64,000 nt of DNA from Brachyspira pilosicoli P43/6/78 (lineage in GTDB: Bacteria; Spirochaetota; Brachyspiria; Brachyspirales; Brachyspiraceae): positions 1,736,001 to 1,800,000 of the forward strand of contig NC_019908.1 of the NCBI RefSeq assembly GCF_000325665.1. The letters are read 5' to 3'. The translations under genes and the position numbers were made by a program. Below are positions 11,224 through 12,775 of the stretch, piece by piece. The notes beneath the pieces are model-generated. The model was not told the DNA's origin and ran no database searches. It saw only the letters and a program-made list of their open reading frames with translations. How positions within the stretch are numbered: position 1 is the first letter of the stretch; each line of letters starts with the position of its first letter.

Positions 11224-11440
11224 TATTTTGTTTCCTTTTAGGTAAATTATATTTACAATATAGTTACATATTGTGCCGAGATTATACATTATTATTATAA
11301 AAATAGCCAGCACTTTTTTACATTCCCCCGCCCTTTATAATTATTGCATAAATAAAATATAAAAGTTATATTATACTTAATTACTCAATTAGAAATTATA
11401 AACGCCCACCCAAGATTTTTTTAAATTTTAAACCTCTTTA

Positions 11441-11523
11441 ACCGCACGTAAAAAAAACTAAAAAATATAATAAAATTTTTATTCTAATATTATTAATATA
11501 CCTTGTTTTGTTAAACGTGCGGT
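11441..11523. repeat. Short inverted-repeat element with ACCGCACGT ends
   Basis: ACCGCACGT at 11441-11449 and its exact reverse complement at 11515-11523 enclose 65 bases of AT-rich DNA. Related ACCGCAC/GTGCGGT pairs occur at 16151-16233 and inside repeat copies A and C. It lies between the lipoprotein promoter region and the flaB promoter. Confidence 0.65.
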
Positions 11524-11572
11524 AAATTATTTTGTTTAATAAAAAAATTTTTTAAAAAAATAAAAAAAATAC

Positions 11573-11600
11573 TAAACTAAATTTAAGTTTATGCCGATAG
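11573..11600 (+). promoter_or_regulatory. Sigma-28 (FliA)-type promoter of flaB
   Basis: TAAA at 11573-11576 and GCCGATAG at 11593-11600 are separated by 16 bases, close to the flagellar sigma-28 consensus (TAAA, about 15 bases, GCCGATAA). The predicted start of transcription near 11608 gives a leader of roughly 238 bases before flaB. Confidence 0.75.
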
Positions 11601-11620
11601 TGCCGAGAATTAATACATAG

Positions 11621-11671
11621 AAAAACGAAGGTCCAAAGATTTGGCGGTCTCGAACCTTTCGTTTTTATTAT
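11621..11671 (+). terminator. Terminator-like hairpin in the flaB leader (hairpin 1)
   Basis: AAAAACGAAGGT pairs with ACCTTTCGTTTTT (one bulged base), with an inner CCAA/TTGG stem in the loop, followed directly by TTTTTATTATT. It starts about 13 bases after the predicted sigma-28 transcription start, so it lies in the flaB leader and not downstream of any gene on this strand. Confidence 0.6.
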
Positions 11672-11715
11672 TAATTGATAAACCATATTTAGGTATTTTT
11701 ATTTGCAGATAAAAA

Positions 11716-11820
11716 TGCCTTGAGAATTTATGACTTACCAAAACCTCAATTTGTTTAAAATCTCGGAAAGTCATAAATTCTCTTTAATATTTTTTGCCAA
11801 TTAGGCACGGATGCCTTTTT
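11716..11820 (+). promoter_or_regulatory. Structured flaB leader with two further hairpins, possible attenuator
   Basis: A perfect 15-bp stem (GAGAATTTATGACTT at 11722-11736 with its complement at 11768-11782) is followed by a short AGGCA-CGGA-TGCCT hairpin (11803-11816) and a T-run, 15 bases before the flaB ribosome site. The AGGCA arm could instead pair with an earlier TGCCT at 11716-11720 next to the 15-bp stem, which would undo the terminator-like hairpin. These pairings are seen in the sequence; a switching role is inferred. Confidence 0.5.
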
Positions 11821-11845
11821 GAATAAATTATCAGGGAGGATGACA

Positions 11846-12706
11846 ATGATCATCAATAATAATATCAGTGCAGTAAATGCACAACGTACTTTAAAATTTA
11901 GAAATGTAGACCTTTCTAAAGATATGGCTTCTTTAGCTTCTGGTATGAGAATCAACAGAGCTGGAGACGATGCTTCTGGATTAGCAGTATCTGAAAAAAT
12001 GCGTACACAAATCCGCGGTTTACGTCAAGCTGAAAGAAACACTCAAGATGGTATATCTTTCATTCAAACTACTGAAGGATACCTTCAAGAGAGCCAAGAC
12101 ATCTTACAAAGAATTCGTGAATTAGCTGTACAATCTGCTAACGGTATATATACTGATGATGACAGAATGCTTATTCAAGTTGAAGTTTCTCAATTAGTAG
12201 ATGAAGTTAACCGTATTGCTAGCCAAGCTCAATTCAATACTCTTAACATGCTTACTGGTAGATTTGCTGACCCTAATGCCGGCGGTGCTCCTGCTGCAAG
12301 TATGTGGTTTCACATGGGTGCAAACATGGACGAAAGAAGAAGAGTTTATATAGGAACTATGACTGCTGCTGCTTTAGGTTTACAAAACACTGCTGATGGT
12401 ACTACTCTTTCTATTTCTTCTATAGACAAAGCTAACAGTGCTATAGGTTTAGTTGATGAAGCTTTAATGAAAGTTTCTAAACAAAGATCTAATCTTGGTG
12501 CTTATCAAAACAGATTAGAGCTTACTGCTCAAGGTTTAATGATAGGTTATGAAAACACTATGGCTTCTGAAAGCAGAATAAGAGATACTGATATGGCTGA
12601 AGCTTCTGTTAAATTTGCTAAAGACCAAATACTTAGTCAAACTAACTTAGCTATGCTTGCTCAAGCTAACACTATGACTCAAGGTGTATTACGCTTAGTT
12701 CAGTGA
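11846..12706 (+). CDS. flaB: Flagellar filament core protein FlaB (flagellin)
   Basis: This 286-residue flagellin forms the core of periplasmic flagella. The N-terminal D0/D1 region begins [14 protein letters not shown] and includes the [20 protein letters not shown] block; the C-terminal region ends with [14 protein letters not shown] and the alanine/glutamine-rich helix that closes flagellins. The short central part without a D2/D3 domain fits spirochaete FlaB. The start is fixed by GGGAGGA 5-6 bases upstream of ATG 11846. A sigma-28-like promoter and a long structured leader precede it and a strong terminator follows, so it is monocistronic. Spirochaetes often carry several flaB paralogues; which one this is cannot be told here. 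Confidence 0.96.
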
Positions 12707-12737
12707 TGATTTTTATTGATTGATTGAAAAGTTAAAA

Positions 12738-12775
12738 AAAAGCTGCTTTCAAAATGAGAGCAGCTTTTTTATTAA
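12738..12775. terminator. Terminator of flaB, bidirectional with the convergent transporter gene
   Basis: AAAAAAGCTGCT and AGCAGCTTTTTT form a strong stem with flanking A and T runs between the convergent flaB and queuosine-precursor transporter genes. Confidence 0.88.

What the first reader, a model, noticed from the sequence alone, without database searches (positions are those of the whole stretch)
11573..11845. Long, structured flaB leader with three hairpins and possible attenuation
After a sigma-28-like promoter, the roughly 238-base leader contains a terminator-like hairpin just after the predicted start (11621-11671), a perfect 15-bp stem (11722-11782), and an AGGCA/TGCCT hairpin with T-run just before the ribosome site. 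A second TGCCT at 11716-11720 could pair with the same AGGCA, giving mutually exclusive folds. Flagellin leaders are usually short, so this suggests post-initiation control of flagellin output.
Basis: partly seen in the sequence, partly recalled or inferred. Interest (0 to 1): 0.6.

Follow-up and report, generated by a model that had tools for sequence, protein, structure and literature searches.

The report
CsrA-type flagellin leader with structured extension
The long folded RNA in front of this Brachyspira flagellin gene is real and conserved: its last 45 bases look like the standard two-hairpin switch by which bacteria throttle flagellin synthesis (CsrA sites), and an extra conserved three-hairpin RNA domain of unknown role is added in front of it.

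Summary
The hairpins are real. The leader aligns in 22 Brachyspira genomes, and the extra stems keep their pairing through compensatory changes. The attenuation reading fails. The hairpin "with T-run" before the ribosome site is AGGC-ACGGAT-GCCT, a textbook CsrA hexaloop (ANGGAN). The Shine-Dalgarno forms a second one (AGGGAG). The same pair, at about -38 and -13, lies before the 76%-identical paralogue with an unrelated stem sequence. It also occurs before flagellin genes across Spirochaetota: 34 of 64 leaders against 0.57 expected, with ANGGAG at the SD in 64 of 64. fliW and csrA are adjacent in all 26 genus members. Best explanation: CsrA represses flaB translation and FliW relieves it, as in Bacillus and Campylobacter. 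What is unusual is a roughly 185-nt domain in front (H1, H2, H3). It starts near the predicted 5' end, is absent from the paralogue, and is confined to Brachyspira and, more weakly, a sister genus. H1 carries a near-invariant loop, TTTGGCGGTCTCGA. Its function is only inferred: 5'-end protection or a binding site for an unknown partner. No biochemistry was done.

The parts
11583..11609 (+). sigma-28-type promoter TTAAGTTT-N11-GCCGAGAA (preferred); predicted start near 11616
   Evidence: 14 of 16 to the consensus with N11; found at N11 in all 22 leaders with 12-14 matches. Start position inferred.
   Evidence: 12 of 16 with N12 between the octamers
11621..11666 (+). H1, stem-loop near the predicted 5' end of the transcript
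   Evidence: 6 of 13 pairs with compensatory change; 96.4% of cells paired against 88.8% in shuffles; all slid registers at most 50%
11640..11653 (+). near-invariant H1 loop TTTGGCGGTCTCGA
   Evidence: Once per genome in 22 of 26 genus members with at most 1 mismatch; exact in most; related loop ATTGGCGTCTCGA in sister-genus locus L105
11691..11720 (+). H2, A+T-rich hairpin with strongly varying sequence
   Evidence: Folds as a hairpin in 22 of 22 with several pair types per position
11722..11782 (+). H3, 15-bp stem, 31-base apical region with an invariant TCGGAA on its 3' side
   Evidence: 22 of 22, z -4.2 to -7.3; 17 compensatory cells, 99.5% paired for the tested H3+H4 pairs
11798..11821 (+). 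H4 = predicted CsrA site BS1; core AGGC-ACGGAT-GCCT at 11803-11816, outer CAA/UUG
   Evidence: ANGGAN hexaloop; only the N differs among 22 genomes (C, T in L020, A in L023); same kind of site in paralogue and phylum
11828..11843 (+). predicted CsrA site BS2, hairpin TTATC-AGGGAG-GATGA holding the Shine-Dalgarno
   Evidence: ANGGAG in 29 of 29 and 64 of 64 spirochaete flagellin leaders; stem of at least 3 bp in 19 of 29 against 1.9 expected
11846..12706 (+). flaB flagellin gene (286 aa)
   Evidence: Pfam Flagellin_N and Flagellin_C; 100% identical to a B. pilosicoli protein
12737..12770 (+). terminator-like hairpin AAGCTGCT...AGCAGCTTTTTT after flaB
   Evidence: Read directly from the sequence; not listed by the scan, whose loop limit is 8

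Best explanation
This is the 5' leader of a sigma-28 flagellin mRNA with two parts. (1) The last ~45 nt form two hairpins with ANGGAN loops, BS1 at -39 and BS2 at -13 on the Shine-Dalgarno. CsrA binds both and blocks ribosome entry. FliW, encoded next to csrA, removes CsrA when flagellin is exported and is itself taken up by flagellin when that accumulates, so FlaB synthesis is matched to filament assembly. (2) The preceding ~185 nt are a conserved domain of three hairpins (H1-H3) found in Brachyspira and, more weakly, in a sister genus, present on this flagellin but not on its paralogue. It most likely protects the 5' end and tunes the amount or ratio of this flagellin mRNA; H1's near-invariant loop may bind a specific partner. 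Shown by sequence: the hairpins, their conservation and covariation, the ANGGAN sites, the adjacent fliW and csrA. Inferred: CsrA binding, repression, FliW relief, and everything about what H1-H3 do.
For: Within the genus BS1 and SD are nearly invariant while the loop's N position varies C/T/A. The paralogue (76% identical) has its own sigma-28-like -10 element, a ~45-nt leader, stem TAGTTC/GGACTA around AAGGAT at -38 and ACGGAG at -13; within the genus that stem covaries while the loop stays ANGGAN. Across the phylum 21 of 28 leaders match against 0.16 expected; an overlapping larger set gives 34 of 64 against 0.57, clustered at -39 to -37 with 18 different 4-bp stems. The loop-closing pair is mostly C-G, as in the CsrA SELEX consensus RUACARGGAUGU, and the loop is the RsmE ANGGAN hexaloop (PMC7652899). 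None of the other 45 window ORFs of at least 150 aa has such a site. csrA and fliW are single-copy and adjacent in 26 of 26 genomes; CsrA has Arg44 and an extended C-terminus, order flgL-fliW-csrA. Campylobacter flaA has a 45-nt leader with two ANGGA stem-loops, the second on the ribosome site, where this mechanism is shown (PMC4894983). H1-H3; the H1 model hits flaB strongly once per genome.
Against: No binding or expression data. The BS1 stem does not vary among the 22 orthologues, so its covariation evidence comes from paralogues and other genera. About half of the 64 leaders in the larger set lack a perfect ANGGAN hairpin at -55 to -25 (variants outside the strict pattern were seen, not counted). 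In 4 of the 5 pilosicoli-clade leaders, this window included, the full-leader ensemble favours a different fold that buries BS1 and the SD (GCC-AATTA-GGC plus CCUUUUUG:CAGGGAGG, probability 0.96-0.99), though the isolated 3' end prefers BS1 in three of them. The role of H1-H3 has no direct evidence.
Confidence: 0.8

Rival explanations
1. Transcription attenuation: H1 (or H4 with its T-run) is an intrinsic terminator and alternative pairing lets polymerase through.
For: In the pilosicoli clade H1 is followed by GTTTTTATT; the consensus scan lists 11803-11816 as terminator-like.
Against: No U-run after H1 in 17 of 22 genomes. The H4 T-run pairs in an extended stem and lies within the 3' arm in sister genera (CAAAAAGC/GCTTTTTG, L117); its loop conservation is that of a CsrA site. 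The proposed TGCCT partner exists in 4 of 22 and has pairing probability 0.00.
Confidence: 0.06
2. H1-H3 form a dedicated regulatory RNA (riboswitch, protein or small-RNA receptor) whose H1 loop is recognised by a specific partner and controls this flagellin separately from its paralogue.
For: TTTGGCGGTCTCGA is almost invariant, G+C-rich in an A+T-rich genome and unique per genome, while the surrounding stem sequence turns over; a related loop in sister-genus L105; TCGGAA in H3 is invariant while its partner strand changes.
Against: No Rfam match; no second copy at another gene in the genome; no complementary sequence with at most 1 mismatch elsewhere in the genome; no FlbT homologue; no partner identified.
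Confidence: 0.35
3. H1-H3 are a passive 5' stabiliser that keeps an abundant mRNA from decay.
For: H1 starts about 5 nt from the predicted start; stems are kept while most stem sequence changes, above all in H2.
Against: Does not explain the near-invariant H1 loop or the invariant TCGGAA of H3; the paralogous sigma-28 flagellin does without it.
Confidence: 0.4
4. A local switch in the last 60 nt: GCC-AATTA-GGC plus CCUUUUUG:CAGGGAGG hides the Shine-Dalgarno, exclusive with the BS1 hairpin.
For: Predicted with probability 0.96-0.99 in the full leader of L004, L005, L006 and L008.
Against: A minority state (0.00-0.27) in the other 18 leaders; the mini-hairpin is broken by GACAA in L007 and L024; a mismatch at the SD in most species.
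Confidence: 0.15
5. A leader peptide: a short ORF overlapping H3 (24 codons, ending just before BS1) or H1 couples translation to the fold.
For: An ATG ORF of 24 codons ends at the same TAG in the window and in the most divergent genome G019.
Against: Not kept in the genomes between; different frames, lengths and starts; the H1 ORF has no evident Shine-Dalgarno and loses its ATG in the pilosicoli clade.
Confidence: 0.03

Closest known systems
Campylobacter jejuni flaA leader (CsrA-FliW; PMC4894983)
   Same: Flagellin mRNA, sigma-28, two stem-loops with ANGGA loops, second on the ribosome site, FliW present, compensatory changes in relatives
   Different: Leader is 45 nt in all; no upstream three-hairpin domain
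Bacillus subtilis hag leader (CsrA-FliW; summarised in PMC7652899)
   Same: Two CsrA sites, one over the Shine-Dalgarno; FliW antagonises CsrA
   Different: No H1-H3-like domain is described in the papers read
Borrelia burgdorferi flaB and Treponema denticola flaB1/flaB2 (CsrA; cited in PMC9481697 and PMC3757020)
   Same: Spirochaete flagellins with CsrA repression shown (Borrelia) or sites near the SD noted (Treponema)
   Different: No long structured leader reported in the papers read; the primary Borrelia paper could not be opened
Caulobacter FlbT acting on the flagellin 5' UTR (cited in PMC4894983)
   Same: Post-transcriptional control through a flagellin leader by a dedicated protein
   Different: No FlbT homologue in this genome

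Membership tests
CsrA-regulated flagellin leader (hag/flaA type) | At least two GGA sites, one overlapping the Shine-Dalgarno | tested here: met
   ACGGAT at -39 and AGGGAG at -13
CsrA-regulated flagellin leader (hag/flaA type) | GGA presented in an ANGGAN hairpin loop | tested here: met
   AGGC-ACGGAT-GCCT and TTATC-AGGGAG-GATGA; 21 of 28 and 34 of 64 relatives against 0.16 and 0.57 expected
CsrA-regulated flagellin leader (hag/flaA type) | csrA and fliW in the genome, usually adjacent | tested here: met
   26 of 26 genomes, one copy each, adjacent
CsrA-regulated flagellin leader (hag/flaA type) | CsrA binds the leader and represses translation; FliW relieves it | not testable with these tools
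   Needs binding and reporter assays
Intrinsic terminator / attenuator | G+C-rich hairpin followed directly by a conserved U-run | tested here: not met
   H1: no U-run in 17 of 22; H4: T-run is part of the stem in relatives
Intrinsic terminator / attenuator | Conserved mutually exclusive antiterminator pairing | tested here: not met
   TGCCT partner in 4 of 22; pairing probability 0.00
Known Rfam RNA family | Match at the curated score | tested here: not met
   No match at gathering scores in the window; only chance-level matches in the leader
FlbT-type flagellin leader control | FlbT protein present | tested here: not met
   No PF07378 match; control rings in Caulobacter

The most novel reading that the evidence does not exclude
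H1-H3 is an undescribed, Brachyspiraceae-specific structured RNA that senses or binds a specific partner through the H1 loop and sets the amount of one flagellin relative to its paralogue with the same CsrA module, adding a second layer to the CsrA-FliW circuit.
Probability: 0.3. Interest if true: 0.65.

Novelty: new variant of a known kind. Interest (0 to 1): 0.45.

Why it matters
It extends the two-hairpin CsrA flagellin switch to Brachyspira by sequence evidence, shows it recurring in flagellin leaders across Spirochaetota, and gives a clean paralogue pair to test: two sigma-28 flagellins with the same CsrA module, one with and one without a 185-nt structured extension. Why spirochaetes keep several flagellar filament proteins is described as a longstanding question (PMC9481697); the extension is a concrete candidate for how their ratio is set.

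Tried and rejected
Attenuation by H1 or H4 (U-runs not conserved or part of a stem). The TGCCT(11716)-AGGCA(11803) switch (4 of 22 genomes, probability 0). A local SD-hiding switch (favoured only in the pilosicoli clade). Leader peptides in H1 or H3 (not conserved). Pairing of the TTGGC motif of the H1/H2/H3 loops with GCCAA at 11797 (inspection of the alignment: no covariation; L007 and L024 carry GACAA). Known Rfam families. FlbT. H1 outside the family: weak hits at E about 0.002-0.004 in four other Spirochaetota genomes, not followed and treated as chance. One annotated-record lookup by a remembered accession failed. The Borrelia CsrA paper is not held. In one search my coordinates for the H1, H2 and mini-hairpin pair probabilities were off by one (they print 0.0); the folds in the same call and the probabilities are the ones used.

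Full report
What the window is. The window lies in a 2.56-Mb genome. Its FlaB is identical to a protein of Brachyspira pilosicoli strain T010, and the best relatives are all Brachyspira. The gene at 11846-12706 is a flagellin (Pfam Flagellin_N and _C). The genome has three FlaB-type flagellins: this one, a 76%-identical paralogue and a 62%-identical one.

Check of the observation. Folding gives four hairpins before the Shine-Dalgarno, not three: H1 11621-11666, H2 11691-11720, H3 11722-11782 and H4 11798-11821. The leader as a whole is far more stable than shuffles (z -4.9). The TGCCT at 11716-11720 is not free; it is the 3' arm of H2. The promoter is better read as TTAAGTTT-N11-GCCGAGAA (11583-11609), matching 14 of 16 consensus bases with the exact spacing. 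A match with that spacing occurs in all 22 relatives, and this puts the start near 11616, so H1 is close to the 5' end of the transcript (the consensus itself is from general knowledge).

Conservation. Of 26 genomes searched in the genus, 25 have a match and 21, counting the window's own, align over essentially the whole stretch from the promoter into the gene. In a twenty-second (G019) the match starts inside H3, but its upstream part could still be aligned. The alignment of 22 leaders is A1. H3 is a strong hairpin in every one (z -4.2 to -7.3), and H2 is a hairpin in every one with many pair types. H1 keeps 96.4% of its pairs, 6 of 13 with changes on both sides, while all slid registers stay at or below 50% (21 genomes, G019 left out). 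The inner H3 and H4 pairs keep 99.5%, with 17 compensatory cells, all in H3. Cells count sequences and not events: the 22 leaders represent about four lineages (pilosicoli clade, main clade, G001, G019), so the number of independent changes is smaller than these counts.

What H4 is. H4 is AGGC-ACGGAT-GCCT. CsrA and its relative RsmE recognise hairpins with an ANGGAN hexaloop, and the CsrA selection consensus is RUACARGGAUGU (PMC7652899). Among 22 leaders everything in the core of H4 is fixed except the N, which is C, T or A. The Shine-Dalgarno lies in a second such loop, TTATC-AGGGAG-GATGA. The positions are -39 and -13. The paralogue, whose leader is only about 45 nt from its own sigma-28-like -10 element, has TAGTTC-AAGGAT-GGACTA at -38 and ACGGAG at -13. 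In other Brachyspira that stem becomes GTGTTC/GAACAC, GTGTTC/GAATAC or GTCC/GGAC while the loop remains ANGGAN. The third flagellin has TCGGAA in a 3-bp hairpin at -46 and ATGGAG at -16, a weaker case.

Beyond the genus, 28 leaders, nearly all from sister genera and other families, were scanned with a fixed rule (ANGGAN, at least 4 bp, -50 to -28): 21 match, 0.16 expected from shuffles, and none of the other 45 long ORFs in the window does. A larger named set, overlapping with the first and not free of close relatives, gives 34 of 64 against 0.57 expected, piled up at -39 to -37, with 18 different 4-bp stems and ANGGAG at the Shine-Dalgarno in 64 of 64. The SD hairpin has at least 3 bp in 19 of 29 against 1.9 expected. 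The limits of these scans were chosen after seeing the first examples, so the counts are somewhat favourable; the margin over chance is large.

Partners. csrA and fliW are each found once in 26 of 26 genus members, with roughly 36 to 62 bases between the two family matches where I compared their coordinates. In this genome the order is flgL-fliW-csrA, and CsrA carries Arg44 and a long C-terminus. That Arg44 matters for RNA binding is general knowledge; that FliW contacts the CsrA C-terminus is from PMC7652899.

Mechanism. The shown precedent is Campylobacter flaA: a 45-nt leader with two ANGGA stem-loops, the second over the ribosome site, repressed by CsrA and relieved by FliW (PMC4894983), and Bacillus hag. 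In spirochaetes, CsrA repression of flaB translation is reported for Borrelia, and sites near the SD are noted for Treponema denticola flaB1 and flaB2 (PMC3757020, PMC9481697). The latter paper states that B. hyodysenteriae FlaB1 and FlaB2 are under sigma-28. No paper in the open library linked CsrA to Brachyspira flagellin (one search lists three papers holding the terms; subscription papers are not held). I therefore read the last 45 nt as a CsrA-FliW flagellin switch. Binding and repression in Brachyspira are inferred, not shown.

Why not attenuation. H1 has a U-run only in the pilosicoli clade (5 of 22). The T-run after H4 pairs with upstream bases in an extended stem, and in sister genera it is the 3' arm itself (CAAAAAGC-AAGGAT-GCTTTTTG in L117). 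The second TGCCT occurs in 4 of 22 and has no predicted pairing with AGGCA. A different local alternative, which hides BS1 and the SD, dominates the predicted ensemble of four pilosicoli-clade leaders but is a minority state or impossible in the rest. It cannot be the general mechanism and may be a prediction artefact; it deserves probing.

The unusual part. H1-H3 add about 185 nt. They are missing from the paralogue. The H1 model finds flaB once per genome with E below 1e-14 in 21 genomes and nothing comparable outside the genus among 198 Spirochaetota genomes. By eye, and weakly by the model (E 0.25), the sister-genus locus L105 has a related element with the loop ATTGGCGTCTCGA and TTGTCGG in a following hairpin, so the domain may be as old as the family. 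The H1 loop TTTGGCGGTCTCGA is almost invariant and, with at most one mismatch, occurs once per genome on either strand. It is rich in G+C for this genome and its stem is free to change, which suggests recognition by something. H2 conserves shape but not sequence. H3 keeps TCGGAA on one strand while its partner strand changes. A stabilising 5' structure and a specific binding site are both compatible; I put them at about 0.40 and 0.35. They are not exclusive.

Verdict. The attenuation mechanism is not supported. The core is a new example of a known kind (CsrA-FliW flagellin leader) and the three-hairpin extension makes it a new variant.

Noticed in passing
11440-11449 and 11515-11524: A 9-bp inverted repeat (ACCGCACGT / ACGTGCGGT), arms 65 bases apart, upstream of the flaB promoter; the only such pair in the window. 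Function unknown.
   Followed up: partly
11573-11609: Two overlapping sigma-28-like promoters 9-10 bases out of register.
   Followed up: partly
11730-11804: A 24-codon ORF ([24 protein letters not shown]) overlapping H3 and ending just before BS1; an ORF of equal length ends at the same stop in the most divergent genome G019, but not in those between.
   Followed up: yes
L009-L024, first 80 bases of the leader: In most non-pilosicoli genomes H1 contains an ORF MRVQVFGGLELPICLVDTI without an evident Shine-Dalgarno.
   Followed up: partly
11640-11646, H2 and H3 loops of L009-L022: TTGGC recurs in the loops of H1, H2 and H3 in most species and related TTGTCGG in H3; no meaning established.
   Followed up: no
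L107 and L120 (same order, other family): The flagellin leaders of two genomes of a related family are also long and strongly folded (-78 and -88 kcal/mol for 230 bases) and share sequence with each other, not evidently with Brachyspira H1-H3.
   Followed up: no
G005, G007, G020, G024 and others: Some Brachyspira genomes have a further FlaB-type gene about 55% identical to the paralogue.
   Followed up: no
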